From Salminus brasiliensis (lineage: Eukaryota; Chordata; Actinopteri; Characiformes; Bryconidae), in NCBI RefSeq assembly GCF_030463535.1, contig NC_132878.1, forward strand, positions 28,488,261 through 28,552,260: a stretch of DNA of 64,000 nucleotides, written 5' to 3'. The notes beneath the pieces are model-generated. The model was given only the letters and a program-made list of their open reading frames with translations, had not been told where the DNA came from and searched no databases. Shown here one piece after another: positions 1-34,830 of the stretch. The first letter of the stretch is position 1; the number at the start of each line of letters is the position of its first letter. The position numbers and the translations under genes are program-made.

Positions 1-960
1 CATAAAGAAACACATCCAGTTGTTAGAAATACATGCCATTACATCATTATAATGACTTTGCAGCCTTGTTATAATGCAATAACACAGATCAGTAAGACTG
101 TTCTGCTCATGCCTGAAGCAAAGTGTGTAATAACAGCAAACCTTATGGAAACCTCCTCCAGTATTCTCCTGTGCCCTGAGCTCTGCTGTGTGCTCCTCCT
201 GATGTTAATTAGGGAGAGGAATCCGGATTAGCTCAAGTGCTGAGAGGATTCAGATGCAAATGAACAGCTTGTTGATCCAGTTTCAGAAGAAAAGCTTTAA
301 AAGAGAGGAGTGGGGCTGATGGTTTCTGTTGGAAATGCGCATATGGGTTAGCGCTGTCCCTACAAGCCTCACACCCTGAAGAGCTTTAGCTCGGACGTAC
401 TGTAAAAAAAAAATCACTTTTACAAACACCTTTGACCAAAGCTGCAGCAAAGAAAAAAACCCAAACAAAAAAAAAACTGTCAGTGCACTTTATGTGTGAT
501 ATGTGTATGCTTGGCAGGAGGCATGCTAGGCTACAAATGAAGCGAGCTGTGCTAAAAATGCTAGCTAGCATCATCAGAATTATGGTTTCCCACAATCGAA
601 ACAAGAGAAACTCAAGTATGTGCGTTTTATGATTATTCTGAACAGATGATTTGAACCAAATCATCTTATTCTATCATTTTCTATTTGGGGGAGGTGGGGG
701 GGGGGAGGGGGGGCTGAGAATATGGTTTTGTGTCTTGGAAAATGAGATTTCTGATGGATTTTAAGCTCAGTCAGAAGCTGCAGCAGAGTAAGAGGTCAAG
801 GGGGCTATCAGGCATGCATGCATGCTCAGTTTTAAATACTGGAGAATATGAATTTGATGAGGTCTGGGCTGAAAACAGCCACAGCAACGTGTGGTTTTGT
901 AAGAGATGCAGTTGTGCAGAGGGTGTTTTGGCGACCCCTGCTGATCACACACAGCGTTAC
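1..960. other. wnt11f2 upstream DNA, no gene seen
   Basis: No coding exon or RNA gene is recognisable here. The short open frames have no family resemblance. The stretch holds a G-rich run at about 686-713 and a GCATGC-type alternating tract at about 812-824. Its position makes it the likely proximal regulatory region of the Wnt gene that follows. No specific factor site is claimed. Confidence 0.5.
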
Positions 961-971
961 TGTTAATGGAA

Positions 972-1053
972 GGGGCGTGGTCTCGCGCCTGTGCGGTATA
1001 TAAGTGTGTGATCGGCCAGGCGAAGCATCGTGAGCTCGAGCTGAAGTGCAGAG
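972..1053 (+). promoter_or_regulatory. wnt11f2: wnt11f2 core promoter with TATA box
   Basis: A TATATAA box lies at 997-1003. It is preceded by a GGGGCGTGG GC/KLF-type box at about 972-980. The first coding ATG is at 1054, so initiation about 25-30 bp after the TATA box would give a 5' leader of only about 25-30 nt. The spacing is standard for a TATA promoter. The exact start site is inferred, not seen. Confidence 0.6.
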
Positions 1054-4000: not shown

Positions 4001-5075
4001 AATACCTACATTTAGAGTGTTATTAATATTCAACCCTAATGAGAGACCGTAACACACACCTCAGTTTATATCACAATACCTACATTTAGAGTGTTATTAA
4101 TATTCAACCCTAATGAGAGACCAGCTTTTTGCTACTCACCGACAGTAAGTAGGTATTTATATCAAGAAGTATGATTTACCAATATAAAATATAAGGGTTA
4201 TAATTATACATATAAAACTGTTTAAACATAGTGTCTGCCCAGCTCTCATCCCTCCTATTGATTAGTCTCATATATTGCCTCAGTCACTACAGCTCACACA
4301 ATGCCAGGCATAGGGTGTCCTGTGGGATCCACAATCCTAATCAATCAGTCTTATTGATAAGCAAATAATCCATCAGGGCGCTGTAGGGTGAGTGGATTAG
4401 GGTTAGGCATTAGCGGATCATCGGTAACCTGAGAAAGGAGGGAGGGAGGGCTGGTTAAACATTACACAGCTCTCTCACACACACACCAACAGACACAGTG
4501 ATTTTAACACTAAGACATACAGCAAAGAAAACCCCCAGCCATCAAACCAATGGCCATTTACTATTGTGAACAAATCCTTGGATCAATTCCCTTTCTCAAA
4601 TGGAACAGTAAACAGAATCACTTTAGTGACCACAAACACTTCCTGTAGACTTTTAAAGGTGCAAAAATAAATGGACATCACAGAATGCAAATAGTTAAAC
4701 ATAAATAGTGTACAGGCACAAAGCGTATCACGAAATATACATATGCTATGGCTAACTTGTGCATCACTCTGAAAGATAAATGGATGCTGTTACACCCTCC
4801 ACAATACCAGTATGTGTGAAATGGGACCATGCAAAGTGTGAAGTTCCCACCAGTTATATTTATGCTCCCTTTTAACCCAGTATATGTGCTCCTTCCACAG
4901 GCAGTGCAATAAGACAGCCACCGGCAGCAGTAGCTGTGGTTTAATGTGTTGCGGCCGTGGATACAACACGTACACCGAGCAGGTGGAGGAACGCTGCAAC
5001 TGCCGCTATCACTGGTGCTGCTACGTCACCTGCAAGAAATGCCAACACACAGTGGAGCGATACGTCTGCAAGTGA
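1054..5075 (+). CDS. wnt11f2: Wnt11-class secreted ligand (wnt11f2 / Wnt11b, silberblick type)
   Basis: Secreted, lipid-modified Wnt ligand of the Wnt11 class, which in vertebrates mainly drives non-canonical Frizzled signalling in convergent extension and planar polarity. Exons: 1054-1151, 2109-2344, 2766-3043, 3311-3603, 4901-5075. All have GT-AG borders, phases 2-1-0-2, giving 359 aa, close to the usual length of about 354 aa. The start gives a poly-Leu signal peptide; a second Met lies 6 codons on. Visible Wnt hallmarks: WNHTQHC near the mature N-terminus, MRWNCSS, the [10 protein letters not shown] loop with the Ser that is acylated in the family, and the Cys-dense C-terminus ([20 protein letters not shown]) ending ERYVCK. 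Details such as [24 protein letters not shown] and [10 protein letters not shown] fit the fish wnt11f2 (slb) paralogue better than wnt11 (wnt11r). Intron 1 carries a MITE-like repeat and intron 4 a 74-bp tandem array. No AATAAA is obvious soon after the stop. Confidence 0.93.
1675..2013. mobile_element. Non-autonomous element with inverted CAGAAACACCTAC ends
   Basis: The stretch opens with CAGAAACACCTACTAC and closes with GTAGGTGTTTCTG, its inverted complement, about 340 bp apart, inside intron 1 of wnt11f2. There is no coding capacity, so this looks like a MITE. No clean target-site duplication is visible, so the superfamily is not assigned. Confidence 0.6.
3670..4122. repeat. 74-bp tandem repeat, about 6 copies
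   Basis: About six head-to-tail copies of a 74-bp unit containing GAGACTGTAACACACACCTC and TTAGAGTGTTATTAATATTC sit in intron 4 of wnt11f2. Copies differ by only a few bases, so the array is young. Confidence 0.93.
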
Positions 5076-7130
5076 GACTTGCAGTGAGACAAAGAGAAAA
5101 GAGGAGATTCCAGTCACTTATTCCATTTCTTTTTGTCATTGACTTTCCCTCCACACTCCTGACCTTTGTATCATGCAGTGTTAACCTGATAAAAAGAAGT
5201 GTGGGCTAAGTTTGGAAAAAGGAACGGACCAACCCTTTCACCGTTTGCAAACACAGCGTCGGGTCATACTTTTAAACTAGCAGTTAAGTTGTGCTAGTTT
5301 GCGAAGTTAAAAACTTGCTTAGCGAAACTAAAAGGCTACTCTGCCAGCAGGTTAAGGAAAGCTTACATTAGCTAATGTAACATGGCCAAATTTGGTAACA
5401 GCAAAGCAACAATTGGCAGATTGCTCTGCTACCAGGGTAAGATTGGTTAACATGGCTTAACCAAACTTGATAAAGACCAAGCTATACTAACTAGCAGGCT
5501 GCTTAGCTATCAGTGTAAGCTAGCCTTGGTTAGTATAACTTGGCCAACCGCCAAGCTACACTTAGCAGCTAGCAGACTGCTGTGCTAACAGATAGCTCAA
5601 ATTAGGCAACGCTAGCTGACCTTGTTGGCACTCAAACACACAGCGATCACACATAGGTAGCTAGCGTTAGCTAATAGTGTATATCTTGTGCGTTTGAGAG
5701 TGAATCGTAGGCCTGTGATGGAAATGCTGCTTGTAGACATTCTCCTTGACACTTTTGGGAGTCTTGATGTACATTTCTTTCCTGGAATCGAAGCGCACGG
5801 AAGCAGTAAGCACTGGATATATTTTGCTGGGACGTGGACTCTGCGTCTGAGGAGGGTGACGATGTGAAAGCCGCTGTGTGTTTGTCATTGGGTGGAATTT
5901 CCCACAGGGGTGAAGAGTGAAGCACTGAGAGGAGAAGGAGGGAGAGCGAGTGATGAAAGGAAAGATTCCTGGATGAATGGAGTGAACAATGGGATGAGCA
6001 TGAGACAATGGGCCAAGGTGTCAGACTGAAACTCCAGAGGTGGAAACAACAAGGACCCAAATACTGATTAACCTGCTTCAGAAACCTCAGGGAGAAAGAA
6101 AAAGAGAAAGAGATGGGGGAAGGAGGGGGAAGGGTAGCATTGTATGTTACTCCTTTTTTTAATTTATTTAACAGAGATGACCCTTGCTTAAAGCGATAGT
6201 TTGGTGAAATATTATCCCCCCTTATCCCAAATGTAGTCGACCAGTCATTACATGTCGCTACATTAGTTTCACACTGGAGCCTTAAAGCTAAGGTTTCTAA
6301 CAATTAATAGAATATTATTATTCTGTTATTCAATTAGCTCTGGAACAACATGGTCGATGTAGCTAACAAGTAATGGAAGCATATACCCCAAGGATTAGCA
6401 TGGCGCTATGCTACACATGCCTACACACATAAGATCTGCTTATGTGGTTTCTGACACTGTAGGACTCAACATAGGCTAAGGGATAAAGCAGTGCTAAATA
6501 TAGTAGTGGCCTAAACTGAGTCCTTACTTTTGTCCATGTTCTCGATAACCAGAAATTTCAGAAACCACATCGGCAAGTCTACAGGATATTACTGAACATC
6601 TCCACAAGGTTTGAGGTGATACAGTAGCCCGGCTTCTTACAGCTTCTTATTTTAATATTCAATTCCACCTTAAATGGTTGGTGCTATGCTGCAGGATTTA
6701 GGTGGATCAGAAAATTAGATCATAGATACTGCAGCTGCATTTAAGCAAGTCTGAGATTTTGGCATGTAGTTAGCACTATGCTAACTGGTGAGGTGTAAGG
6801 ATCCATGACTTTCATGTAAAGCAGAACCTGAACCAGCTAACCACATTCTAAATGGCTGGGTATAAGATTCTGTGACCTGTTAGCAACCTAAGTCTTGTAG
6901 CTCCAGTGTGAAGGTAAAGAAGCTCCAAAAATCTTGGCCGCTCGACTTCTTTTGGGTTAAGAGTTAACGGAGTCTTAGGGCTTTTTCCTGAAGTATTGCT
7001 TTAACAGTAGCTTATTGTAAATATAAGAATAATAGATTTATTGTACATTTTGCTGTAAAATATGTAAGTGTATTTATTTTATATATATAAAGTGTGTTTG
7101 TCTCAGCACTGCTGTCAGCCTGGTTAATGA
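5076..7130. other. wnt11f2 3' UTR / flank, no gene seen
   Basis: No coding exon is recognisable. The first part should be wnt11f2 3' UTR, but no canonical AATAAA was found before about 7.1 kb. From about 5280 to 5680 there is a degenerate GCTAG/TTAGC-rich repeat. At 6340-6420 and 6770-6840 there are single copies of a dispersed repeat related to the array at 61.3 kb. Confidence 0.5.
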
Positions 7131-8468: not shown

Positions 8469-9990
8469 TTAACTCAAGGCTACATACTGTTTCCCCTCTG
8501 CTGCAATGTGGATGTATGTGATTGTAATGTGGGCATATATGACAGTAATGTGGGTGTATATGGCAGTAATGGGAATGAATGTGGCTGAAAAGTGAATATA
8601 TATGGCAGTAATGTGGATATTTGAGACTGTGATGTGGGTATACATGTCAATTAGGTGGATGGATATAGTAGTAATGTGACTGAATGTAGCAGTGGTTTGT
8701 GTATATGAGGCTCTAATGTGGGTGTGCAGTAATGAGGCTGTAATGTGCATGTATATAGGACTAATGTAGGCATTTGTGGCTTTATTATGGATGTATATAA
8801 CAGTAATGTGGGTATATACAGCAATAATGAGGCTAAATCTTGCAGTAATGTGAGCATATACAGCAGTAATATGGCTCAATCTGGCTTCTTTGTGAATATA
8901 ATATATATAGACATATATGGCAGTTCTGTGGGTATATATATTTCAGTAATGTGGGTGTATGTGGCTTAATTGTGAATATATATAGCAGTAATGCGGATGT
9001 ATGTGGCTTTATTATGGGTATATACAGCAGTAATATGGATGTATGTGGCTTAATTGTGAATATGTATAGCAGTAATATGTATGTATGTGGCTTTATTGTG
9101 GATACATACAGCAGTTATGTTGATGCATGAGGCTTTATTTTGGGTATATACAGCAGCAATGTGGATGTATGTGGCTTCATTGTGAGTATATATGGCAGTA
9201 ATATGGGTGTATATGGCTGCATTTAGGGTAAATATGGCTGCAATGAGGGTATATATGCGAGTAATGTGGGTGTATGTGGCTTTATTGTGAATACATATAG
9301 CAGTAATGTGGACGTGTGTGGCTTTATTATAAATTTGTAGCAGTAATATGAATGTATGAGGCTTTATTGTGGGTATATACAGCAGTAATGTTGATGTGTG
9401 TGGCTTTATTGTGACTATATATAGTGGTAATATTGATGTATGAGGCTTTATTGTGGGTATATACAGCAGTAATGTGGATGTATGTGGCTTCATTGTAAAA
9501 TATGTATGGCAGTAATGTGGGTGTATATGGCTGCAATATGGGTAAATAAGGCTGCAATGAGGATATATATGGCTACAATGAGAGTATATATGCAAGTTAT
9601 GTGGATGTGTGTGGCTTTATTGTGGGTATATAAAGCAGTAATGTGGATGTATGTGGCTTCATTGTGAACATGTATGGCAGTAATGTGGGTGTATGGGGCT
9701 GCAATATGGGTGCATATGGCTGCAATAAGGGTATATTTTAATAAGGGCTAATTATGGCTACAGTAAGGGTATATATGCGAGTAATGTGGCAGTATGTAGG
9801 ACACTTGTGGGTATATACAGAAGTAATGTGGGTGTATGTAGCTTTATTGTGAGTATATAAAGCAGTAATGTGGATGTACTGTATGTGGTTTTATTGTGAA
9901 TATATATAGCAGTAATGTGAATGTATGTGACTGCAATTTGGGGAAATATGGCTGCAATGAGGGCGACATGATGTGTATATATACTGCTGT
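8469..9990. repeat. 1.5-kb minisatellite, about 21-bp and 45-bp periods
   Basis: Diverged tandem units of the type GCAGTAATGTGGATGTATGT followed by a GGCTTTATTGTG and TATATA segment. The first 300 bp runs with a period of about 21 bp. From about 8.9 kb a higher-order period of about 45 bp takes over. The period is a multiple of three, so stop-free frames of up to about 180 codons appear on the - strand. These are repeat artefacts. Confidence 0.9.
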
Positions 9991-18544: not shown

Positions 18545-20570
18545 GTGTCAAATGCTGACTGTGTGTGTATGTGTGTATGTATGTGTGTGTGTGTGTGTAA
18601 GAGACCATCATGTGTCCTGATATTTGTTATGGATGTCTGGTAGAGGGAAAGAACGAGAGTCTATCAAGCCATATTTAAAACATGCAGTTAAAACATATAG
18701 CAAACAAAGTATAAATAATTATAAATGACTGATATTGACTCTAATGGAACAAGCAGTCAGTCAGAGTTCTGACCATCTCCACAATTACAGACCTGCTGCC
18801 TGAACTGACCTGACAGAAAACGGCTTTTGGGAACGTTTATTCACATATGAAGTTGGGTGAAAGTGAGAATAAGAGCCAGAGGAAAGCCTAGGAAGAGGTC
18901 TCTAATTTAGCATCACAACACTAAGACTCATCATTACGTGCATACTGTGTAACCACACCCAGGTTCCTTTGGGCAGGTGTGCATACAGTATCCCAACCTG
19001 TGCCAAACGCGCCTCGTTTGGGGTGAAAACATGATCTCGCCTCAATTCTACGATACTCCCAAAGCCAGGTGTTAACTTACTATGTTGTCCACATAGCTAA
19101 CGTTACTACAGCTGTGAACAAATGCCATCTCTGCCGCTGCTCCATGTTAAACTGCACAGGGATATACGATAGCCCAGAACACAGGTCCTTCTTTCTGTAT
19201 TTACTTTCTTGCTCCAGGTCCAGACAGTCTGACCAATAAGCAGAGAGAATGTTCTCACATGGTTTGTTGCAACACATTTTGGTGAACATTCAAACAAGTA
19301 TTAGCTTACATTAAGCTCAGATTGTATGATGCATCTGAGAAAAACTGAATTATCATAGAAAACACCAGTAAACACTCTACAGCAGCAGCAGGAAAAACCT
19401 TTCGCTTCAGTTTTATGTCCTTTTAACAGAAAATGATGCTAATGACATAAATAATAATAAATTAATAAAAAAATTATAATCAAATCAAGCAATCAGTCAA
19501 TGGAATTACAGAAACAGAAAGGTTTGAGAAAGGAAGATTTATTTGCATTTGGTGACAAACCTGCTATACAGGAATCTGTGGACAAGGACATAAACATGAT
19601 TGAATCTAATGAAATTAGATGCAAATGAGATTTTGAGTCAACTGTTTTAAGGCAAATTCTAGTGTGAATAATGTATTTAGAAAAGAATATGATATTATAA
19701 ACAGGCAAATGCTTCAGTAATTTAATTCAATAAATGAAATGAAGGAAGATTTGATCTCTTTAACCCAAGGCCTGTTTAGGACATTTTTATAAATACCAAT
19801 TTCAGTTAGAATAAGGGCAGCCACACATGCCTCATGTGACTCTAAGATTTATTGGCCTTGTTTTGTCATAAACTTCTATAGTGCCTGTGGGTATCGGAAT
19901 GTCTTCCATGTAAAACAGTCCTCCTCTTTTGATAAATTGAAAAATGACTAGCATGTCTACGAGCTGACAATACAACAGCTGGGACTATGGTTCCTTCCAT
20001 ATCCTTCCATTTAGTATTAAAAATACATGATCAGCACAGACTACTTAGTGATTTTCTCAACACTTGGATTGATAAAGATGGCTAAATCTGTCCACACTTT
20101 GAGGGGCACAACCATTGTCTCAGAGCACTGGAAGATTCAAAGATTTACGCTTCATCAGTGGTGTAGGCTTTGATAATATAACCTTTCTAAAAAATCATTT
20201 AGGAAGATTAAAATTAAGCATTTTACCATTATGACCATTATTTTACCTTAAAAAAAAAAGTTCACCCGTATATAGCGCAAGAGAGTAAGGCTGTAGTTCA
20301 GGTCCAGCCAAGCTGTTAAGTTAAAGTTAAAGTTAAATGTGTGCTTTTTATATTTCTGAGAGATGGAGCTTCTTCAGGTCGAGAAAAGATGAAAAACAGC
20401 TTGATGACTTTAAATACAGCTTCACTTTAACCCTATCAGGTCAATAAAAAGAGAACCTGGTGCTGGTGAATGCTGGCATTACAAGTATGAAAGAAGATAA
20501 AGACATTTGTTGAAATTTATTTCACTGCAGAACATGAGATTTTAAATCTAGACACTGGTGTTGTAATACT
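18545..20570. other. Intergenic between convergent genes, no gene seen
   Basis: No exon is recognisable. A dispersed repeat at about 18985-19250 (containing CTGTATTTACTTTCTTGCTCCAG and GCTCCATGTTAAACTGCACAG-like text) has a second direct copy at 24.48-24.69 kb. The rest is AT-rich unique-looking DNA. Confidence 0.5.
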
Positions 20571-20617
20571 GAGATTTATTTCCATATGTTTTATGTCTTG
20601 GTACATTGGCAGACCAC

Positions 20618-20623
20618 TTTATT
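20618..20623 (-). terminator. Candidate poly(A) signal of the orphan membrane gene
   Basis: AATAAA on the - strand lies about 380 nt beyond the stop at 20999. A second hexamer is at about 20574. Usage is inferred. Confidence 0.4.
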
Positions 20624-20998: not shown

Positions 20999-22006
20999 TT
21001 AGTACATGCGGTTGGTCTGCACTCGAGGGAAAGCGTTACGGTTGCTGTAGTCTGGGCCAGAGTAATGCGGTGCTGAAGACTGCCCCATTCTCTGCAGAAC
21101 CAAAGGAAGAAGGAACAACCATCCATAAACAAACTGGGTTATGTGCTTAATAGGCAATAGCAGATATTGCCTCTCCATCACAGAGGCCAATATTGCTCTA
21201 ACAAGTAACACAAGTCCAAAAGTATCCAGACAGACCCTCTAATGACTGAATTCAGCTTGTATAAACTCCATAGAAGAGCATTGACCAATAGAACAGGATG
21301 CTCTGGAAGGTCACTGTGCCCAATGCTGACCAGGGGCTGGGGGGGTATAAAGCCTCCCTGCATTGTGCTGTGGAGCAGTGGATTACAGGTGTGGTCTGAT
21401 TAGACACTGGGTCCTGCCACAAGAGGGCGTAAAAGTGCTTCCCCTGCTGCCCTATAAAAAGGCCCTCAGAGGCTACTTTTGGGTAGAAGTAACATTTGGC
21501 GAGAGATGGCACCTTCATTACACACCCCATCTCTGCCAGAACCACTTCCAGGTGCCTGGCAGAAGAAAATCTGGGGTCACTGTGTTTATTATGTGTCCTG
21601 CCATTGACAGCCAGCCTCCATCGGCTTTTGTTTGCAGGGGTGTTGTGAACGAGAAATCTTGGACTTATTGGAACCACATCACCTTTAGGGCCGAATCAAG
21701 GTTCTGTTTGGGATCCAACTGTTGGGTTCAAGTGGTGGCTCAGCGGTTAGAGCGCCGGGATATCGATAACAGGGTTGTGGGTTCGATTCCCGGGCTCGGC
21801 AAGCTGCCACTGTTGGGCCCTTGAGCAAGGCCCTTTACCCTCTCTGCTCCCCGGGCGCTGGAGTTGGCTGCCCACCGCTCTGGGTGTGTGTGTGTACTCA
21901 CTGCCCCTAACACGTGTGTGTGTGTGAGTGTGTTCACTACCAGATGGGTTAAATGCGGAGGACACATTTCGCTGTACAGTCCACACTGTACAGTGACGAA
22001 TACGTG

Positions 22007-22038
<32 letters not shown>

Positions 22039-22490
22039 TGGCCTAGTGATGATATGAGGGACTCTAACAGCTCAGTAATATTTGTAGGACATCCTGCAGC
22101 CAAGTGTACCTACAATTGTGTAGGATCTACACGATCTACAGCCCCAGCTGCAACGTCTGTGGGCAAATGTGCTGCAGGATGCCCTATGGAGCCTATGTGC
22201 CTCCATGCCCAGGCATATCTTATCTTGTATCCAGGGTAGAGGTGGCCCAACAGGATACTAGAACCTCCATTCAATTGCACAGTTTTCCCCAATAAACATT
22301 TCCCTTTGCTCTAATATTGTAATCACGTACATTTATCAATACATACATAAATACATGAAAGAAAAGTACAATTATCAAACTGACGCCTGTGATTTTTACT
22401 ATTTTGTGGCTCAGTGGTTAGAGCCCCGGGCGCTGGAGTTGGCTGCCCACCGCTCTGGGTGTGTGTGTGTGTACTCACTGCCCCTAGTTC

Positions 22491-22531
<41 letters not shown>

Positions 22532-23229
22532 CACGACCACAGATGGGTTAAATGCGGAGGACACATTTCGCTGTACAGTGTACACTGAACAGTGACAAAT
22601 ATGTGCACCTTTACCTTTACCTTTAATTGCACGTTTTTGGAAGCACTTCATAAGACAACCATCATTAGTAAGTAGTCCTTACATAAACAATAAGGGGAAC
22701 AGTGACCTCCAAATAGTGTTAAAGCTCTGATCTGTGTGATGCCCATCAGTCAGCTTCAGCAGAGATCTGTTCATAACTCACTATAATTTAACCCCAACAG
22801 CAGCTCCCCCGATCATTAGACTTACACTCACAAGTGATATAATACAGGTAACGATCCTGAATCTACTAATTGGGGTCACAAATAGGGTCCAACCAATTTC
22901 TTTGACCCATATATTAATCACCCACTTCATTGCAGATATGAAGTGACCAAACTAAAACGGTGTAATGTTAATTTCTGCCTAAAGGGTCTACATCCTGATT
23001 GGGGTAAAATTGTCATGTAATGACGGATCCCTGCTGAAGCTGAGAGGTTCAGAGGTGTGTATGTTGTGAGTGAGTGCTCACCATGTTGTCAAAAGCCTGC
23101 GGGGAGGCAGGCGGATTATAGTTCCTGTACGAATCAGGGGACGAGCTGCCCTCTTCATACGGATTCCTGCCCTTAGCATGAGGGTTACTGAGGACCTGAC
23201 CTGGTTGTGCAGTGTAGCTGCAGAACACA

Positions 23230-23274
<45 letters not shown>

Positions 23275-26200
23275 CACATATAACAAATTGTATAGATACA
23301 CTGGAGCTATGAGGCATAATGCTATCTATGAAAATGTTTGACAAAACAGCAGTAGCATCCTGAATGCTAACCAAGGTCCATGTTCTAGATAACTAGTGTG
23401 TTATACAGGGTCAAAAGAAAACACACAAGTAAGTCTATTAGAAATTACTAAACAACTCTACACACTATTTAAGGAAAGTGTGTGCTGATTCAGGTGGCCG
23501 GTTAGCACCATGCAACTGGTGGGGCATAAGCGTCCATTACTTGTTAGCCACATTAGCCATTAGCCTCCTTCCTATCTTCAGTGTTAACTGTTAGGGTATG
23601 AATCCATGGTTAGCTACATAGGCTCATAGCTCCAGTGCTAATTGATGGGGTATGGGCTTCCATTACTTGTTAACTGCATTAATGTCAGAATTCCAGTGTA
23701 AAACGGAAATAGTACATTTTAGACACATGTCTTAGCTACATGTGACAATAAGGGGGCGCTAAACTGTCATTTAAAATAGAAATTTAAAATAAATTAATAA
23801 ATAAATAAATAAACACCTTGCTAAAGTATTACCCATAATACCTGTAAGGCTGCTGGGGTCCTCCTAGAGCCGGCCTATCAAACGCACTGCACACACATAA
23901 AACATGCTAAATTCAGCCAACACACACTCACAAACATCCTCATTACAGTGTAAAATGTAAACTTTCTGATGATCTTGATTTCCAGTTTACCTGTTCGGTG
24001 GACGAGGACCTCCCATTGGTGGTCTGTCAGCGGATGGCCGCATGCTAGCAGATGGGCTTCAGACAGGAAAGCAAATAGAAGAAGAAAATCTTTAAGCATT
24101 CTGTCTAGATCAGTGTTGACAGTGCGATTCATTCCTGAATCATAATTGGACCTTTTTTATTTAATGCATCAATATGTATTAATATATAACACATTAATCA
24201 CTTCATATCATTTTAAATTGGTCTGCCACTTCCTAAACTTCAGAACCTGACTTGTTGCAATGGTGGCATCCTGTCACAGTACCACACTGGAATTCAGTGA
24301 GCTCTTTAGAAGCACCCATTTCTTCTTTCACTAATGTTTGTAAAGACAGGCTGCATGGCAAGGGGCTTGTTTGTATTCTCCTGTGGCAATGGGACTTTTC
24401 ACATTTGCACTTTTTAGTTAAATGGGACTAAACGAAGTCTGGAGCACTTTGTCTGTGGTAGGAATGTGATCTGACCTCGATCTGGCCTATCAGGTGTTCT
24501 CTGCAAGTTCGAGCTAAGCGGCTCCTGTAGCCAGGTGGTAACCTGCTATATTGGCCAGATAGTCACTACAGCTGCCGGCTCTGCTGCTGCTCTGTGTTAA
24601 ACTGCACAGAAATGTAAACTAGTCCAGAGAAGGTCTGCAGGGCCTTCCTACTGTATTTACTTTCTTGCTCCAGCCTCAGACAGGTGGTGCGTCTCTAAAC
24701 CGAACCAAGGAGAAAACGCTCCAAGTTTACACATCTATTAACTGTTTAGGACCAGAGAAAATAAACTATAGGTCAATGCTTTAAGAAATGCCTGACCAGC
24801 AAAACACATGCCATTCACACCTATTACCCAGTACTTCTCAGATTTTGTAGATGTATTTCGTAACCCATGTCTATAGATGGCAGTAGCCAGTGGTTAAATT
24901 GTAATCATGTGTTTAAATGAACTTTACTTTCCAGTATGGAAAAATATATTTAAATATTCTAGGTCTTCTTGCTACACATTCACCAGTGATTTCAGAATGG
25001 GTTTTAAGCATTGATAGTTATGATCCAATGCACTGATTGAATTCTATATGTAGTTGGCAATATCCAGCTGTAGCCCAAACAGAGACAAATACACTTTAAT
25101 TGTCACAATACTCCAAATCCAGCAGTTCAAACAGTATGGAGAAAAGCTGATCACAGAACCTGGATGTGTGCTATTAGGGAAATAAAAATGAATGAGACGG
25201 ATTTCTCTGGAAAATTTTCCTGTTTACCTGTAGGGTTGCCGAGGGTCTCCCATAGGTGGTCTTCCAGTTAAAAAAGCTGGGTTTTCTGGTATGCTGTATA
25301 CAAAAAGAGAAACACTGAAGAAATCTATAACATCTATAACAACAATCAGTGCTACACTATTTGGGGACTCTGGGAAATGAGGTGTGACTTAGGCATTCAG
25401 GTTGCAGGGACTCAGTGACTCAGGGCAGCACAGGGAACCAAGGTGCTCAGATAACGGGGAACTCTGGGAACCTTCGGGCCACGGAGACTGAAGGACTTTA
25501 GGATTTAGGTACTTGAGGATTTCAGGGAACGTGGGGATTCAGAGAAATCATGAAGACAATAACTCAAGGACTTAAGCATTTAGGGGGCATCAGGGGCTTT
25601 GAGGATTTCAGCACTTAAGAATATTAGGGAACTGGGGGAACTAAAAACATTCAGAAAACCTGGGGTCTCAAGGAACTCAGAGAGGTTAGGGAACTGAGGT
25701 GCTCATTGTACTCAGGAATTTAGAATTCAGAGACTTAAGGAACTCAGGGTACTTGCGGGACTTGGGAGATTCAGCCACCTGCTGTTCAGTGCTCACCTGT
25801 ATGGACGTTGGAATGTGGCTTGCATGGGAATCCCCCTTTGCAGTGGTCTTTGACCAGGATTAGAGCTGGCAGGACGGGCCTTAGAGAGACAGAGAAGGAG
25901 AAGCAAACAGAAAGAGAGAATCACAAATTTGCACAATGCAGTCAGGTCACAAACACACAAACTCTATTCCAACAACAAATGAACTTTTCAGTGAAAACGT
26001 ATTAATAGAATTACTGTATCATTGCAGATGTTTGACACATGAAGCAATTCTTCTTCTCACTTCATCTAGCTTTGCATCTATCTATTTTTAGACATATGAC
26101 TGATCTGTTTAATCATTACATGGGTTTACAATAGTGCAGTTTTCCTGTATGATACTTGTCTTATCACTACAGAACAACTGTCAGGAAACACTCGGGTGTG

Positions 26201-29200
26201 GCTGGATGAACAGGTGAATGCATGTGTCCATGAATGTGGGTGGACATACAAAAAAGTATGTCTGAGATGTTTCAGTGTTTTATAGAGAGCAATCCTGGAG
26301 AACTAAGGGCCTGTTCAGCATTGCACTTTGGAGTTTTGTTGCTCTAACAACCAGCTGGAGTTCCCCACCCATGTCTCTTATCAGATAAAGTTCATACACT
26401 GGTTATATCTGGAGTATACACTGATCAGCCATAACTTTAGTACTATCTGATTAATATTAAGTAGGTCCCCTTTGCACAAGACCAGTTTCCTGTGGTATCT
26501 GGCAGCAAGACGTTAACAGCAGATCTATCAAGTCCTTTAAGTTGTGAGGTGGGGTTTCCATGTAATCACATGAATGAGACCTAAGTGACTATGCCCCTGT
26601 CACCTTTCCACCATTTCTTGACCACTGCATACCAGAAAAACCCCACAAGACCTGCCTGATGTTTTGGAGATGTTCTGACTCGGTCTGAATCAGAGCCTTT
26701 GTCAGAGTGGCTCAGATTATTTTTCCTGCTTTAAACATTTGACCTTCAAGAAGTGACCGTTCACTTGACAGATGCCACTGTAGACAAGGATAATCAGTGG
26801 TTTTCTCTTCATCATGGTGCTAATGTTATGGCTGATCGGTGTAGTATAAATTAACAAATGGAACATATTTTGATGACTTGATGAGTGGAAATGAATGCAG
26901 AAATATATGTGAGCTCACATTGCCAATACTTATGTTAGGCTTAAGGCCTTTGTTTATTGGACTGCGTGAATGGCCACAGGAAATGGTCAAACAAAAGGAA
27001 ATGTGAAGACAATTTGCATATATTTTCTACAGATATTTGTTTCCATGCCATTATTGACCTTTCTTGGCTGCACTGAAATGATGTCTGACTATGTGAATGC
27101 AAATTTACAAATTCACTGGTTATTATTTGATTGATAAACAGTGACTCACTGCCATGTCCGATGCAAAAACCATTCCTGGGAACATGTCCTCCTCTGCAGG
27201 GGGACTGGACTGCGGTTTATTTCCATTGCTATGAAACAAAGAAACACACACTATAAGTGGCTTTAGAAGGAAGGCTGTATGTCTGGGGACACTTAACTTT
27301 TCAAAATGCTCATATTAATGTTTATAATTAATATGTTTCCAGTACATGTAAGAGAATGCATTTCATTATAGTTTGTTTTCATTCCAAAAAAGAAAAAACT
27401 CCCTCCAAAGGTTTTCTATGGGGTTGAGATCTGAAGACTGGCCAGGCCACTCCAGGACCTTGAAATGCTTCTTACGAAGCCACTCCTTTGTTGCCCTGGC
27501 AGTGTGCTTGGGATCATTGTCATGCTGAAAGACCCAGCCACGTTTCATCTTCAGTGCCCTTGCTGATGGAGAGAGGTTTGCACTGAAAATCTCACAATAC
27601 ATGGTCCCATTCATTCTTTCATGTACACGGACAAAGCATGATGTTGCCACCCCCATGCTTCACAGTTGGTATGGTGTTCTTTGGATGCAACTCAGCATTC
27701 ACTCTCCTCCTAACACAACGAGTTGTGTTTGTACCAAACAGTTCTACTTTGGTTTCATCTGACCATAAGACATTCTCCCAATACTCTTCCGGAACATCCA
27801 AATGCTCTCTAGCAAACTTCAGACGCGCCGGATATGTACTGGCTTAAGCAGGGGAACACGTCTGGCACTGCAAGATCTGAGTCCCTGGCGGCGTAGTGTG
27901 TTACTGACTGTAGCCTTTGTAACGTTGGTCCCAGCTTTCTGCAGGTCATTCACTAGGTCCCCCCGTGTGGTTCTGGGATTTTTGCTGACCGTTCTTGTGA
28001 TCATTTTGACCCCACGGGCTGAGATCTTGCGTGGAGCCCCTGAATGAGGGAGATTAGCAGTGGTCTTGTAGGTCTCCCATTTTCTGATTATTGTTCCCAC
28101 AGTAGATTTCTTCACACCAAGCTGTTTGCCTATTACAGATTCAGTCTTCCCAGCCTGGTGCAGGTCTACAATTTTGTTTCTGGTGTCCTTCAACAGCTCT
28201 TTGGTCTTCACCATAGTGGAGTTTGGAGTGTGACTGTTTGAGATTGTGGGCAGGTGTCTTTTATACTGTTAACGAGTTCAAACAGGTGCCATTAATACAG
28301 GTAATGAGTGAAGGACAGAGAAGCCTCTTAAAGAAGAAGTTACAGGTCTGTGACAGCCAGAAATCTTGCTTGTTTGTAGGTTCTTTAAAAATCAGATTTT
28401 CAGAATTTATTTTCTCATTTTGTCTTTCGTAGTTGAGGTCTACCTATGATGTCAATTACAGGCCTCTCTAATTTTTTTAAGTGGGAGAACTTGCACAATT
28501 GGTGACTGACTACATAATTTTTTCCCCACTGTAAATGTCTTGTATTATTTTTTTCTTTAATATAAAGATACTTAAGAGACTCAAGAGAAGAGTGAATATC
28601 CAAACTAAGCCCCACATTTCCATTCCAATAAAGCTTATTGATAACAGGCCTCTGAAGTTTGACTTTTTGCACCATTACAATACTTATAGGCAACTACTAA
28701 TCATATTTTCCTCTCCATGGAACACATGTTAATGCTCAGTAGTGCACATAGATGCTGCTTATATATATATTTGATATTTCTAAAATGCTTTAATTCTCAA
28801 TGGGCAGATCTGCAGCTGAAACAGGTAGACTAGTGCATCCCAACATTTTTCAATATTAACATTTTAATATAACATTATCATCATTATGGCTTTTATAAAA
28901 ATGTTTTTTGGGGAGGTGGGGTAGAGCACTATAGGCCCCTGTGGCTCAGCCTAAGCTTTTGGCCTTTGTTTTCTTTATATTACTTTTACTTTTATACTTT
29001 TATACTAAGTAGTTTTGAAACCAGTACTTTTACACTTTTACTTGAGTAAAAAGCTTAAGTTGATTCTTCAACCTCTATTGATGTCTTTTTAAACCCTAGT
29101 ATATACAATTCTACCTGAGTAAGGAATGTGAATACCTTTGACATCTTTGAAAACATTCAAGAATGTTGTCATAGTATATAAATCATTTTAACTGCTATCA

Positions 29201-31910
29201 TGTTCCTTATTTTAACCTAATGTACCATGTCCTTTTGTACCTCCCCAAGGACTACAGAGGGAAATGAGCCTTATTGCACTTATTGAGTGGTCATGTAAAC
29301 TGCATACTCCAATTTTTTAGATCAGAGTAAAGTCTAAAAATCTGATTAAGAAATCCAATAAAGATAGCTGGATATTAGCCCAGTAATCAGAATTCTCAGT
29401 GCACGTATACACTGTTTAGCGAGATCAAGCTTGTCATGCTGGTAACCCCGTTCTAATCAAGCTTGTCTACCAGGTCTTGCTGCTGAACCAGCTTAGTCCC
29501 AGAAGTTCATGCTCAAGGTTCTAGATACATCACAGTCTGTGAATGTGAGCAGCAGTGTGAGTAAGTTTCAGTCTGTTGTTAGAAATGGAGGATAGTGAAA
29601 AAGACGCTGTTTTGCTGCAGCAGACGAGGTCACATACATCTTAATGTCTGTTCTGAGCATTAGCTCAAGCTCTGCATGCTGTTTTTTTAATCTAGAACTG
29701 TCGTACAATTTCAAGTCAGATGGTTTTGTTTTTCTAATGTGGCCTGAACACAACATTTTTCAACATTAACAATATAATAAAAAATTATCGTCATTATGGC
29801 TTTTATAAAAATGTTTTTTGGGGAAGTGGGGTAAGGCACTATAGGCCCCTGTGGCTCAGCCTAAGCTTTGGCCTTTGTTTTATTTAAAGAACCTAGATCT
29901 AATAGCCACAGTTCACCACTGTTTATCTGCATGCTAAATCTCTGCTCCAGTTGGAAGGGCAGAAGCTCCCCAGAGGTATTTATGAGTTTGATGAGTCAGG
30001 ATTATAATCTGGTTGTCAGGCACATGACTTATTGGTAGCTTTCTGTTATGCAAGCTTAGTGCTTTTCTTATCAGGGTGTTTTATTAGATAATTTGATGCT
30101 AAGCCAATATCTCTCAGTATTGAAAAGTAATCGGTATTTAATAGTTATTTATAAAATATAATAAAATATCAGTAAAATGCAAGAATTTATGTGTTGATTC
30201 CTTAAAAATAATGTTCTGACAAGTTACGTGATATGAGGGAGAAAAAGTGATGTCATTTCAGCTTTAGAGGAGTTAAAAAGCTGGTAAAATGTCATTTTTT
30301 CAATATTGATTGAGTGAGTCCATCAAATATTGCACACGTTACATAAAGTAGACTGAAATATTGAACACGTCACGTTCCCCTCCATCACACACTATTGAGA
30401 TGGGAAAATCGGATGCTGCTGATTATTAACATCGTAGGAAATAAACAGACATGTGTGTGTGTGTCTAACCTGGTGCTCTTGCTGGATTTTGAGTATATGA
30501 TGTAGATGGTCAGACCCACCACCAAAGCCAGGGTGATTCCAGGAAGAGAGGCCACAAGGGCAAAAGTCAGTGTGGTCCATCGCTGATTACAGTTCTCGCC
30601 CAGATAAAACTCATCTATATAGTTATTACACCTGCAGACAGATAGCAGTCATACATAGTTAACAGGAAAAGACCACAATTGTCATTTACTGAAAATGGGT
30701 CAGTTTCTTAGACAAGAATGAGCCCTTCCAAATCTGTAAGTCCCTTTAGTTAAGTTCTTCACTCTCAAACCACAATAGTTACATAGAAGTTTTATAGCAG
30801 TTACTGAATAACAGCTCTTATTACTCTGATTTATGAATGTCACAATGTCACTTTGTTTAATTGAGTCCCAGCTGAGCTCAACAACAAGAAGCTAGGTATG
30901 ATTACTTTTTACCTGAATCACCTTTGAATGAAGCATTTGATACAAAAAAAGTGTCTTTCTGAAAAGTGTCAGAGAAATCACTTTAGACTTTGAAGGGCTC
31001 ACCTTTAAAAAGGTAGAAATTGACCACAATACATTTGTCTGTAGTAAAAGTAAGGATATATTTCTACTTGAGTTAAAGTAGAGTTCCTTTCCAATGTCCT
31101 TGAGTATTAAAGGTGAAAGTAAGGTAAAAACTCACTAAGTTGATATAGTGATATCCAGGAGAACATGCTTTAGGGCATCTTCTTGCTTTTCTATTGCAAC
31201 ATCGTCTACCTGTTTTCCCAGTAGTGGGTCAGATAGTACTTCTAAAGTACAGCCTCCACACATGGTGGAGGTAGTTTTATACACTGTAGCTGTAACTAAG
31301 ACCCCCAAAGTAAACAATGGGATTCCCACATATCCATTCATCCACAACAGCTCATTGTTTGAACACAGGTTGATCAGGCAGGTTGATCAGGCAGACATGA
31401 TGGAAATAAATCTAGTAGAGTTTGATGAGGCTGAGATTTGCTGTTCTACTGTTTCTACTACTGATTTGTTTGGACAGATATTTTGGTGTGTTTCGGTTAG
31501 AAAGCTTGTCTGCTTCAAACAACACAGCTCGCCTCTCAGTCTGCACAGTTAACCTCACTTATAAGGGAAGTTGTAGCATTTGCATTTCAGTTGAACTGTT
31601 TCTAAACAGTTGGAGCGTTGTGTTGTCTTGTGTAGCAGAGCTGTGCAGACTGCTTGTGTATAAATATTACTATTAAAAGACAGTGCTTTTTTATACTGTT
31701 ATTATTTATATTCTATTTATATTGTATTCAGACTTTTACTAACTGTGTAACATCCTTTGTTTTTAATATTTAGCAACACTGACCATTTTCTTATGTTCTT
31801 TTTTCATTACTGGTTAGCTGCTGGAAGAAAATTGATCATCTGGCAGTAGGACACTGATTACCAATCAAATTTGAAAACAAATTCAAAGGATACTGAAAAA
31901 TAAATAAATA

Positions 31911-31978
<68 letters not shown>

Positions 31979-33383
31979 TATATATTGTGAAAAATACATA
32001 ATTATCTTAATTTTATTCCAAAAAAACTGAATTGTAATATTTTATATGCATTACACATACAGCTTTTAATCAGTATGGTTTACAGAAATCTAACGTCTTG
32101 AATTTGAATATTTCATATCAAATTTGAATAAATTACTAATCAAACAGTCTCAATATAAAAACAAAAGACAACAAAAAGGACTGTAAAATGACACTGAATG
32201 CATAAAAATGAATACAAATGATTTTTAAATAATATTTTAATTTTGGAATGCACTAGTGTAGATCTGAATAAGTGATTGATTACTGCCCGACTACAGTTTA
32301 GGATTGAGGGGGCTGATTTTTGATTATTTGCAGTAGGGAACTAATTTGCGATCACCTACAGTAAGGAAGTGGTTGCCTAAGCAGTGATCTTGAGTATTTG
32401 CGGAAAGCAATTGGTTACTGATTACCTGCAGAAAGGAGTTTCATCCTTACAGAAACACCTGCTGACGGTTATATCACAGTCCCAGTCCTGGTCGCAGAAT
32501 TCAAAGTCCGCTTTACCAGCACAAAGCCTCACTGGAGAACACACAGAACATTTCTGCTTACAGTAATTTAGCTCCTTTACTGTCATTACACACACTTGCT
32601 CAGCGGACCAGGGTATTGAAGCCACAACCCTGTGGCCAATAATGCAGAACTTTTGCCAATGAGACACCACTGCTCCTTGGTCTTGCGCTATGTGTTTATA
32701 CTCATACATGATATTTGCAATTTCATATGCAATTTATAACATTATAAGACTTTACAATCCACACACACAGTAATGAATAGCTGACACCCACAAATATTAC
32801 AAAACCAGTAAAACAGCAACACTTACTCCATTAATGAGCTGAGAACACATGGCATACATGTTTTGTACATAGTTTGTCCTGATCTAGTTCATCTGTTGTC
32901 CATAAGTTTCTGTTCATTTAGATTTTTTTTTATGTATATTTAAGGGTGCGACTGATGTGTGAGACAATCCCTCTGAACAAGCACTCTTTTACAAATGTAT
33001 ATTCTATTCTATTTATATCCTGATAGTTATATATAAGATATGAATGAGAAAAAGGGTAATTTGTAAAACAATCAAAATAGGGGTTGTCTTCAAATCGCTC
33101 TCCTTCAGTATAAACTGCTTGTTTAATTGTGTAGGAGCTTGTCGCACATAACAGAACAGATGTAAGTTATTAAACAGGTCATGAGTTTCTCAAATATGGC
33201 CAAATACCCCCCCTCCCCCAATTGCTATCTACATATTTAAATATGTTATGAGCTAAGAATTGAAATATAAGTTGTAGTAAGTTCAAGGAATAAGATTTTA
33301 CCACACTTACCATCTGGCGTAGTCTGTCCATCTGCAGTAAAAACAACCACAGCGGCGAAACACACACACAGAAAGACCCTCAT
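20999..33383 (-). CDS. Unrecognised type I membrane protein, EGF-like ectodomain, Pro-rich tail
   Basis: I do not recognise this gene. Ten exons join in frame (- strand, 5' to 3'): 33383-33311, 32531-32426, 30631-30470, 27228-27150, 25879-25797, 25293-25228, 24056-23991, 23886-23842, 23217-23082, 21091-20999; 302 aa, all GT-AG. Residues 1-19 are a signal peptide ([19 protein letters not shown]). The ectodomain of about 60 aa has eight Cys, including CFC and CRC, spaced like an EGF module ([19 protein letters not shown]). Residues about 80-106 are a membrane helix ending TIYIIY. The tail of about 196 aa is rich in Pro, Gly, Ser and Tyr, with related blocks [22 protein letters not shown] and [11 protein letters not shown], and ends TNRMY. 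The EGF-TM layout recalls the membrane-proximal end of transmembrane mucins, but no mucin or SEA domain is present. The ATG sits just after CAGG, so a 5' non-coding exon is likely upstream. It lies between igbp1 (convergent) and taf1 (same strand). Confidence 0.72.
21195..21390. repeat. Dispersed teleost-type repeat fragment
   Basis: Contains CAAAAGTATCCAGACAGACC, TTGACCAATAGAACAGGATG and TATAAAGCCTCCCTGCATTG followed by a GCTGTGGAGCAGTGG block. From memory this resembles an abundant non-autonomous DNA repeat of teleosts. Class is unproven. It lies in the last intron of the orphan gene. Confidence 0.45.
21475..22330 (+). mobile_element. Decayed Tc1/IS630-type transposon, split by a SINE
   Basis: Before the SINE, the frame reads [14 protein letters not shown], matching the first catalytic Asp/Glu block of the Tc1/IS630 superfamily (FSDESRFCL type), but with Ala in place of the Asp. 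After the SINE, the frame ends in [20 protein letters not shown] followed by a stop, the typical C-terminus of these transposases. The middle catalytic region is absent and frames are broken. It is dead and sits in the last intron of the orphan gene. Confidence 0.7.
21732..22035 (+). mobile_element. tRNA-derived SINE, full length with poly(A)
   Basis: The head is tRNA-like, with an A-box TGGCTCAGCGG and a B-box GGTTCGATTCC (about 21780-21790). Then come a unique body (GCAAGCTGCCACTGTTGGG and onward), a GT-rich segment, and an (A)29 tail at 22007-22035. It is inserted in the Tc1-type relic. The conserved boxes suggest a fairly recent copy. Confidence 0.88.
22406..22626 (+). mobile_element. Second SINE copy, internally deleted
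   Basis: Same family as the SINE at 21732-22035. The head GTGGCTCAGTGGTTAGAGC jumps directly to CCCGGGCGCTGGAGTTGGCT, losing the B-box and about 100 bp. The GT tract is longer, and the end reads CACCTTTACCTTTACC instead of poly(A). Confidence 0.8.
23231..23273. repeat. (CA)n microsatellite
   Basis: About 21 CA units, lying about 13 bp upstream (on the - strand) of the acceptor of the orphan gene's ninth exon, which begins at 23217. Confidence 0.9.
24475..24695. repeat. Dispersed repeat, second copy of the 18.98-kb element
   Basis: Shares GTTAAACTGCACAG, TGTATTTACTTTCTTGCTCC and the preceding GCTGCTGCTC block with 18985-19250, in the same orientation. It lies in an intron of the orphan gene. 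Confidence 0.6.
25360..25785. repeat. Degenerate short tandem array
   Basis: Roughly 400 bp of imperfect units of the type AGGGAACTCAGG / GGACTTAGG, about 10-20 bp long, between the fifth and sixth exons of the orphan gene. It is heavily diverged and non-coding. Confidence 0.7.
26416..26845. mobile_element. MITE with TACACTGATCAGCCATAAC inverted ends
   Basis: Left end TACACTGATCAGCCATAAC and right end GTTATGGCTGATCGGTGTA are inverted complements about 430 bp apart, flanked by TA. This fits a non-autonomous Tc1/mariner-like element with TA target duplication. There is no open frame. Related copies lie at 53.8 and 62.3 kb. Confidence 0.8.
27385..28532 (-). mobile_element. Tc1-like transposon, inactive and truncated
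   Basis: The - strand encodes a Tc1 transposase in three shifted pieces. 28214-27819 holds the paired-like HTH ([30 protein letters not shown]). About 27830-27619 holds [12 protein letters not shown], with the first catalytic Asp. About 27656-27390 holds [11 protein letters not shown] and [11 protein letters not shown], with the second Asp and the final Glu. A frameshift lies near 27838, and an internal deletion near 27640 removes the usual block after GGGNIML. The frame stops just after LWRE. The upstream terminal repeat is intact, ending CAGTGGGGAAAAAATTATG at 28532 next to TA. The downstream end is missing. It lies in intron 3 of the orphan gene, upstream of its fourth exon (27228-27150). 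Confidence 0.88.
28846..28978. repeat. About 130-bp direct repeat, copy 1
   Basis: Shares ATTATGGCTTTTATAAAAAT, a GTTTTTTGGGG block and GGCCCCTGTGGCTCAGCCTA with copy 2 at 29755-29885, same orientation, about 910 bp apart. ACTTTTACTTGAGTA-type repeat text follows. This is intronic DNA of the orphan gene. Confidence 0.85.
29755..29885. repeat. About 130-bp direct repeat, copy 2
   Basis: About 90 percent similar by eye to 28846-28978. The pair could be a local duplication or two insertions of one element. Confidence 0.85.
31390..31515. repeat. Dispersed repeat shared with 40.83 kb
   Basis: Contains CTAGTAGAGTTTGATGAG, TTGCTGTTCTACT, CAGATATTTTG and AAAGCTTGTCTGCT. The same blocks occur in order at 40828-40985 inside taf1. 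Confidence 0.7.
31919..31975. repeat. (AT)n microsatellite
   Basis: About 28 AT units in an intron of the orphan gene. Confidence 0.95.
32285..32440 (-). repeat. Degenerate tandem units abutting an exon donor
   Basis: Units of about 35 bp read, on the - strand, CTTTCTGCAGGTAATCAG, CTTACTGTAGGTGATCG and CCTACTGCAAATAATC. The first is the real exon 2/intron 2 border of the orphan gene (donor after 32426). The second still looks like a usable 5' splice site. Confidence 0.6.
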
Positions 33384-34094: not shown

Positions 34095-34830
34095 TTATCA
34101 ACTTTCAGTCTACACATTCTGGATATTAATGTTATTAGAGCTCCATTCTGGATATTAATATTATGAGAGCTTCATTCTGGATATTAATGATATTAGAGCT
34201 TCATTCTGGATATTAATGTTATTAATTAACTTTATTCTGGATATTAATGATATTATAAGTTCATTCTGGATATTAAATGTTATTAATGAACTTTATTCTG
34301 GATATTAATGATATTAGAACTTCATTCTGGATATTAATGTTATTAGAGCTTTATTCTGGATATTAATATTATGAGAGCTTCATTCTGGATATTAATGATA
34401 TTAGAGCTTAATTCTGGATATTAATGATATTAGAGCTTCATTCTGGATATTAATGTTATTAATTAACTTTATTCTGGATATTAATGATATTAGAGCTTCA
34501 TTCTGGATATTAATGATATTAGAGCTTCATTCTGGATATTAATGTTATTAATTAACTTTATTCGGGATATTAATGATATTATAAGTTCATTCTGGATATT
34601 AAATGTTATTAATGAACTTTATTATGGATATGAATGATATTAGAACTTCATTCTGGATATTAATGATATTAGAGCTTCATTCTGGATATTAATGTTATTA
34701 ATGAACTTTATTCTGGATTTTAATGATATTAGAGCTTTATTCTGGATATTAATGATATTAGAACTTCATTCTGGATATTAATGTTATGAGAGCTTCATTC
34801 TGGATATTAATGTTATGAGAGCTTGTATAC
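34095..34830. repeat. 29-bp minisatellite, about 25 copies
   Basis: Tandem units CATTCTGGATATTAATG plus TTATTAGAGCTT, with recurring variants (TTATTAATTAACTTTA, GATATTAGAGCTT). The recurring variants form a partial higher-order pattern. The array begins about 100 bp past the taf1 poly(A) signal. Confidence 0.95.

What the first reader, a model, noticed from the sequence alone, without database searches (positions are those of the whole stretch)
20999..33383. A complete, unrecognised EGF-like/TM/Pro-rich-tail gene between igbp1 and taf1
Ten small exons spread over 12 kb join into one 302-aa frame with correct GT-AG borders and matching phases. The product has a clear signal peptide, about 60 aa of Cys-rich ectodomain, a strong membrane helix and a long tail rich in Pro, Gly and Tyr. 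I cannot match it to a named family. Its location between two mammalian Xq13 genes gives it a testable orthology. It could be a short receptor or adaptor, or a mucin that lost its repeat and SEA parts.
Basis: partly seen in the sequence, partly recalled or inferred. Interest (0 to 1): 0.8.

Follow-up and report, generated by a model that had tools for sequence, protein, structure and literature searches.

The report
Short EGF-type membrane protein gene
A ten-exon fish gene beside taf1 appears to code for a small single-pass membrane protein whose outer part resembles the last EGF module of membrane mucins and IMPG2, but without their mucin and SEA parts and with an inner tail partly built from repeated small exons.

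Summary
The gene model is right to the base: ten minus-strand exons (20999-33383) with GT-AG borders and closing phases encode 302 aa. A small gene finder recovered seven of the ten exons unaided, scoring 86.9 against at most 18.0 in 12 null sequences. In the 1.07-Gb own genome the exons match only this locus. Pfam and PDB name no family, but Pfam also finds no EGF in recalled human MUC17. Gene anatomy says more. A phase-2 intron splits the one codon between EGF cysteines 4 and 5, next to the membrane helix, a mark that Stein and Staros report for ErbB ligands, mucins 3/4/12/17, meprins and IMPG2. The C5-C6 loop has 12 residues, as in IMPG2-like and cspg5-like genes of this genome and recalled MUC17, not 8 as in tgfa. 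Best reading: a SEA-less, mucin-less relative of the MUC3/12/17-IMPG2 juxtamembrane EGF module, with a 10-tyrosine Pro-rich tail partly made by exon duplication. Sequence support is moderate: tgfa scores nearly as well as IMPG2 against shuffles. Expression, orthology and function are untested.

The parts
33311..33383 (-). E1: start codon, signal peptide ([19 protein letters not shown]), ends phase 1
   Evidence: donor at 99.6th percentile
32426..32531 (-). E2: EGF module up to its fourth core cysteine (C28, C37, C43, C50, C52, C59); ends AG| phase 2
30632..32425 (-). Intron 2: phase 2, splits the single Arg codon (AG|G) between C59 and C61, the C4/C5 position of ErbB-ligand and mucin EGF modules
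   Evidence: same position in other genes; literature:
30470..30631 (-). E3: third EGF loop (CRC-x12-C, ending YLGENC), membrane helix, first Lys-rich cytosolic residues
27150..27228 (-). E4: start of cytosolic tail
25797..25879 (-). E5: tail; ends ...QRPYS; similar to E6
25228..25293 (-). E6: tail repeat exon, 66 nt, phase 2-2 ([12 protein letters not shown])
23991..24056 (-). E7: tail repeat exon, 66 nt, phase 2-2 ([12 protein letters not shown])
23842..23886 (-). E8: tail repeat exon, 45 nt, phase 2-2 ([12 protein letters not shown]); weakest splice sites
23082..23217 (-). E9: tail with YRN (257)
20999..21091 (-). E10: tail with YSN (287), C-terminus NRMY, stop
20516..20623 (-). Three AATAAA-type sites downstream of the stop (20516, 20575, 20618); possible polyadenylation signals
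   Evidence: pattern only

Best explanation
A gene for a short type I membrane protein. Its ectodomain of about 60 residues is one EGF module of the juxtamembrane kind found in membrane mucins 3/12/17, IMPG2 and CSPG5, followed directly by the membrane helix and a Pro/Tyr-rich cytosolic tail of about 195 residues, part of which arose by duplication of a small phase 2-2 exon (shown at sequence level). It has no SEA domain and no mucin stretch, so it is not a mucin by definition and cannot be cut by SEA autoproteolysis (inferred). Most likely way of working (inferred; about 35% for this mechanism): the small EGF module engages a partner on the same or a neighbouring membrane, and the tail, with ten tyrosines including two YxN sites of the Grb2-SH2 type and repeated Pro motifs, docks SH2/SH3-type adaptors when phosphorylated: a non-shed co-receptor or adaptor rather than a released growth factor.
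For: Gene model and single locus. Phase-2 intron inside the one codon between C4 and C5 plus helix in the same exon, the mark reported for ErbB ligands, mucins 3/4/12/17, meprins and IMPG2 (PMC1618406). C5-C6 spacing of 12 with [FW]Y-x-GE-x-C shared with two IMPG2-like genes here and recalled MUC17; spacing 12 shared with two cspg5-like genes. BLASTP to recalled MUC17 33.9 bits, E 8e-7 for that single comparison. EGF+TM score to MUC17 68, reached by 4 of 3000 Cys-keeping shuffles; IMPG2-like 60 and 61, by 22 and 13 of 3000. Profile of IMPG2-like, cspg5-like and MUC17 modules: 20.7 bits, 0 of 2000 shuffles as high. No SEA match in the window. Tail motifs.
Against: No direct database hit to the class: the MUC17, CSPG5 and TGFA queries of the own genome did not list this gene. 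With the own-genome x12 profile alone the finding scores 13.5 bits, reached by 9 of 2000 shuffles and exceeded by one Delta-like control (14.2). tgfa (45; 20 of 3000) is as far above its shuffles as IMPG2 is. Pfam reports no EGF family at all for it, while the IMPG2-like EGF scores 20.0 bits, just under cut-off. Two extra cysteines (C50, C52) in the second loop. Tail motifs are short and common in Pro-rich chains; receptor/adaptor function is not shown.
Confidence: 0.55

Rival explanations
1. A divergent ErbB (EGF/TGF-alpha family) ligand: a membrane-anchored EGF module that is released or presented to activate an ErbB receptor.
For: Same C4/C5 phase-2 intron and third loop + helix in one exon as tgfa and a second ligand of this genome, with the similar approach to C4: ETPFC here, ETPAC in tgfa, NTPAC in the other. 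The published criterion would count it as a candidate ligand. tgfa alignment score reached by only 20 of 3000 shuffles.
Against: The residue before the sixth core cysteine is Asn, where verified ligands have Arg. Loop C5-C6 has 12, not 8, residues. Profile of three ligand sequences gives 9.3 bits, reached by 18 of 2000 shuffles. Long multi-exon Tyr/Pro tail, unlike the short tails of ligands (recalled).
Confidence: 0.2
2. A transmembrane mucin of the MUC3/12/17 kind that lost its repeat and SEA parts in this lineage (a degenerate mucin).
For: EGF-TM kinship with MUC17. Fish MUC3/12/17 with SEA are reported missing, yet MUC3-type EGF modules are listed for zebrafish and rainbow trout.
Against: No SEA or Pro/Thr/Ser-rich remnant in or before the gene. 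The frame is intact through ten exons, so it is not decaying. The tail shows no clear similarity to the recalled MUC17 tail. Absence of an outgroup prevents telling loss from primitive absence.
Confidence: 0.15
3. The model is partly wrong: true transcripts skip E6/E8 or use other last exons, or the exons belong to two genes.
For: The gene finder left out E6, E8 and E10; E5 and E6 have slightly negative codon scores; the E8 donor scores -0.3.
Against: Phases close through all ten exons. E6 resembles E5, E7 and E8 beyond 1000 codon shuffles each. Skipping E6, E7 or E8 keeps the frame, so alternative splicing would not abolish the protein.
Confidence: 0.1

Closest known systems
MUC17 (and by report MUC3, MUC12), juxtamembrane EGF and membrane helix
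   Same: C-x-C-x12-C loop ending WYSGETCNQ against FYLGENCNQ; best alignment score of the 12 segments compared; C4/C5 splice site by report
   Different: No SEA, no PTS mucin stretch; two more cysteines in loop 2; unrelated tail. MUC17 sequence recalled
IMPG2 (interphotoreceptor matrix proteoglycan 2), second EGF module and helix
   Same: AG|G intron at the same codon, 12-residue loop with WYRGEHC, FC..D..CDI in loop 2; 7 of 16 loop residues identical
   Different: IMPG2 has SEA domains, two EGF modules and a much longer ectodomain; the finding has one module and no SEA
CSPG5 / neuroglycan C, EGF and helix
   Same: 12-residue third loop, FCRCN, intron at the same codon as judged from translation
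   Different: Weaker alignment: 123 and 43 of 3000 shuffles as high; Arg before last cysteine, Asn in the finding
TGF-alpha and other ErbB ligands
   Same: C4/C5 phase-2 intron, third loop and helix in one exon, [EN]TPxC before the intron
   Different: 8-residue third loop and Arg before C6 in ligands; tail different

Membership tests
MUC3/12/17-IMPG2-CSPG5 type juxtamembrane EGF module | Splice site between EGF C4 and C5, module next to the membrane helix | tested here: met
   criterion
MUC3/12/17-IMPG2-CSPG5 type juxtamembrane EGF module | 12 residues between C5 and C6 | tested here: met
   that 12 defines the class is my own grouping, not a published rule
MUC3/12/17-IMPG2-CSPG5 type juxtamembrane EGF module | Profile similarity to the class above controls | tested here: inconclusive
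   13.5 bits without MUC17 (one Delta control 14.2), 20.7 with MUC17 (0 of 2000 shuffles, controls 6.1-10.4)
SEA-type membrane mucin | SEA domain | tested here: not met
   17 SEA places at E<=1 in the genome, none in the window
SEA-type membrane mucin | PTS (mucin) stretch | tested here: not met
   S+T+P 12% of the ectodomain; no PTS-like open stretch in introns 1-2 or upstream
ErbB ligand | C4/C5 splice site near the membrane helix | tested here: met
ErbB ligand | Arg before the sixth cysteine (all verified ligands but the tomoregulins, PMC1618406) | tested here: not met
   Asn (GENC); rule
ErbB ligand | Binds and activates an ErbB receptor | not testable with these tools
   needs an experiment
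EGF-like domain (Pfam) | Score over a Pfam EGF cut-off | tested here: not met
   no EGF model at all; none for MUC17 either, and IMPG2-like, cspg5-like and tgfa stay under cut-off, so the test does not discriminate; an invented standard EGF scores 39.5 bits

The most novel reading that the evidence does not exclude
A vertebrate gene kept in fish and absent from mammals that carries the SEA-less, mucin-less form of the MUC3/12/17-IMPG2 EGF-TM module. It would be the kind of gene behind the conflicting reports on a fish MUC3, and a signalling receptor whose docking tail grew by exon duplication.
Probability: 0.25. Interest if true: 0.65.

Novelty: new variant of a known kind. Interest (0 to 1): 0.45.

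Why it matters
Where the MUC3/12/17 mucins came from is open: one inventory reports them missing in fish, another lists fish MUC3 by its EGF module. A small gene with that module alone, at a defined place between igbp1 and taf1, is a concrete candidate to test. It would also be a receptor-like protein with a Tyr-rich docking tail.

Tried and rejected
Pfam and PDB sequence searches with the whole protein, the EGF part and the EGF-TM part: no family; one Pfam model at E 0.41 and one PDB chain at E 9.8, both read as chance. Relatives in IMG/VR and GTDB contigs with E3: none confirmed, as expected for a vertebrate gene. The only other place in the own genome, C1:5.83 Mb (L011, E 1.72), was looked at and dismissed as chance. 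The SEA place at C1:76.08 Mb was fetched in the hope of muc13; no EGF-TM exon was seen and it looks like a SEA-CUB protease (label recalled), so muc13 was not tested. Shisa, WBP1/VOPP1, LDLR-A, TNFR, sushi, WAP and agouti likenesses were weighed only from memory of cysteine spacing and dropped. Paper searches (interval between the neighbouring genes; such a protein) returned nothing; others returned other work. Seen of papers: PMC1618406 abstract, passages and parts 1-2 of 3 of its ligand section; PMC1552070, PMC2834686, PMC10558372 passages only; all others only as listings.
Full report
Observation. The minus strand from 33383 to 20999 holds ten exons whose borders are GT-AG and whose phases close into 302 codons and a stop. 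Codon log-odds, trained on 16 open pieces of the neighbouring wnt, igbp1 and taf1 genes picked by eye and set against this gene's introns, are +63 in frame and negative in both other frames; 8 of 10 exons are positive alone, E5 and E6 are about -1. Of 18 splice sites, 15 lie at or above the 95th percentile of GT or AG sites of the region; the E7 acceptor and both E8 sites lie at 88-91. A simple exon-chaining programme, not told the answer, gave 86.9 here, 26.8 on the other strand and 7.4-18.0 in 12 Markov sequences; it found seven of the ten exons (one with a 5' extension), missed E6, E8 and E10, and added four others.

Surroundings. Pieces on either side match Wnt (1.3e-31), TAP42/IGBP1 (8.8e-24), DUF3591 of TAF1 and a bromodomain; solved TAF1 matches at 8.5e-38. 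Calling the Wnt wnt11-like is recall. The own genome has 1,066,335,885 bases in 103 contigs, the window at C1:28488261-28552260. Exons of the model match only there; the one other place has E 1.72 and reads as chance. The tool scores only its best candidates, so this is strong but not complete evidence for a single copy.

Protein. Signal peptide; cysteines 28, 37, 43, 50, 52, 59, 61, 74; helix with best hydropathy window from residue 84; Pro-rich tail with ten tyrosines, among them YRN at 257 and YSN at 287. No PPxY, no N-glycosylation site, S+T+P 12% of the ectodomain. Tail exons E5-E6, E6-E7 and E6-E8 are alike at DNA level beyond all of 1000 codon shuffles each; E5-E7, E5-E8 and E7-E8 are not clearly so (41, 128, 234 of 1000). 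E6, E7 and E8 are phase 2-2 and begin by completing an AG|N codon. The tail thus seems to have grown by exon duplication.

Gene anatomy. E2 ends and E3 begins inside the one codon (AG|G, Arg) between C59 and C61, and E3 carries the third EGF loop with the helix. Stein and Staros use this, a splice site between C4 and C5 plus nearness to the membrane, as the mark of ErbB ligands, and report it also for mucins 3, 4, 12, 17, meprins and IMPG2 (PMC1618406: abstract, passages, two of three parts of the ligand section). In this genome I saw the intron on both sides in raw sequence for tgfa and a second ligand on C18 and for an IMPG2-like gene; on the acceptor side, by reverse-complementing by hand, for L038, L040 and L042 (an EGF-like and two TMEFF-like loci, names recalled); and, judged from translations at the border, for L046, L050-L052 and L059. 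Delta-like L037 and L041, and L043, read through without it. L039 was not read.

Third loop. The two ligands have eight residues between C5 and C6; the finding has twelve, ending FYLGENC. Two IMPG2-like genes (WYRGEHC; C8 and C29, each near a SEA place), two cspg5-like genes and recalled MUC17 (WYSGETCNQ) also have twelve. Identity of the 16-residue loop to the finding is 7 for IMPG2-like and 6 for cspg5-like and MUC17. The name IMPG2 is recalled, but two copies with SEA, two EGF modules and a helix fit the published zebrafish pair (PMC10558372, passages).

Strength of kinship. EGF+TM alignment scores, with the number of 3000 Cys-keeping shuffles that reach them: MUC17 68 (4); IMPG2-like 60 and 61; cspg5-like 47 and 45 (123, 43; the second is the third loop onward only); tgfa 45; second ligand 45; L038 38 (161) and L040 30 (692), third loop onward only; L043 36 (379); Delta-like 32 and 31 (444, 1108). 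For the EGF part alone: IMPG2-like 9 and 6, MUC17 7, tgfa 60, second ligand 30 of 3000. So MUC17 stands out, IMPG2 is next, and tgfa is not far behind. A profile of three own-genome x12 modules recognises MUC17 at 29.6 bits, which supports the class, but gives the finding 13.5 (9 of 2000 shuffles as high; one Delta control 14.2, the other 0.6). With MUC17 added it gives 20.7 (0 of 2000; tgfa, second ligand and Delta controls 6.1-10.4). The ligand profile gives 9.3 (18 of 2000). Direct BLASTP to MUC17: 33.9 bits, E 8e-7 for one comparison. The reverse genome searches with MUC17, CSPG5 and TGFA did not list the finding. Kinship therefore rests on the sum of intron, loop length, motif and moderate similarity, not on one strong hit.

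Reading. Most likely this is a small, non-shed receptor or adaptor of the cell surface. Gene, EGF-type module, helix and tail motifs are shown or read from sequence; partner, phosphorylation and tissue are inferred. It is no mucin by definition, because no SEA place lies in the window and no PTS stretch was seen. It has Asn where verified ErbB ligands have Arg, so it is not a standard ligand, though it shares their intron; the ligand reading stays open. One inventory says MUC3/12/17 are missing in fish (PMC1552070, passages), the other lists MUC3 in zebrafish and rainbow trout by EGF module and notes that teleost and amphibian modules group apart. A gene like this one would explain both; that is inference. 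Whether public annotation already names the gene could not be checked here.

Noticed in passing
window 27360-28480: Intron 3 holds a roughly 1.1-kb stretch that reads like a decayed Tc1/mariner-type transposon (recalled look; no family search was run). The gene finder placed two spurious exons in it.
   Followed up: no
window 21725-22040 and 22400-22620: Two related stretches with a tRNA-like head and a shared body, probably SINEs, lie between E10 and E9 (read, not tested).
   Followed up: no
window 34115-34824: A 29-bp A+T-rich tandem array of about 24 copies fills much of the space between this gene and taf1.
   Followed up: no
window 8801-9929: A diverged 42-bp minisatellite field between the Wnt gene and igbp1; it yields long chance open frames of up to 188 aa.
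   Followed up: no
window 1-5200: A Wnt gene (Pfam 1.3e-31; wnt11-like by recall) on the plus strand, with a 74-bp tandem array at 3659-4121 near its exons.
   Followed up: partly
L053 and L057 (G000 C1:36.51 Mb and C10:19.54 Mb): Two more SEA-neighbouring EGF exons ending ...AACR and ...ATCR, perhaps an IMPG1 pair (recalled), with what looks like the same split codon.
   Followed up: partly
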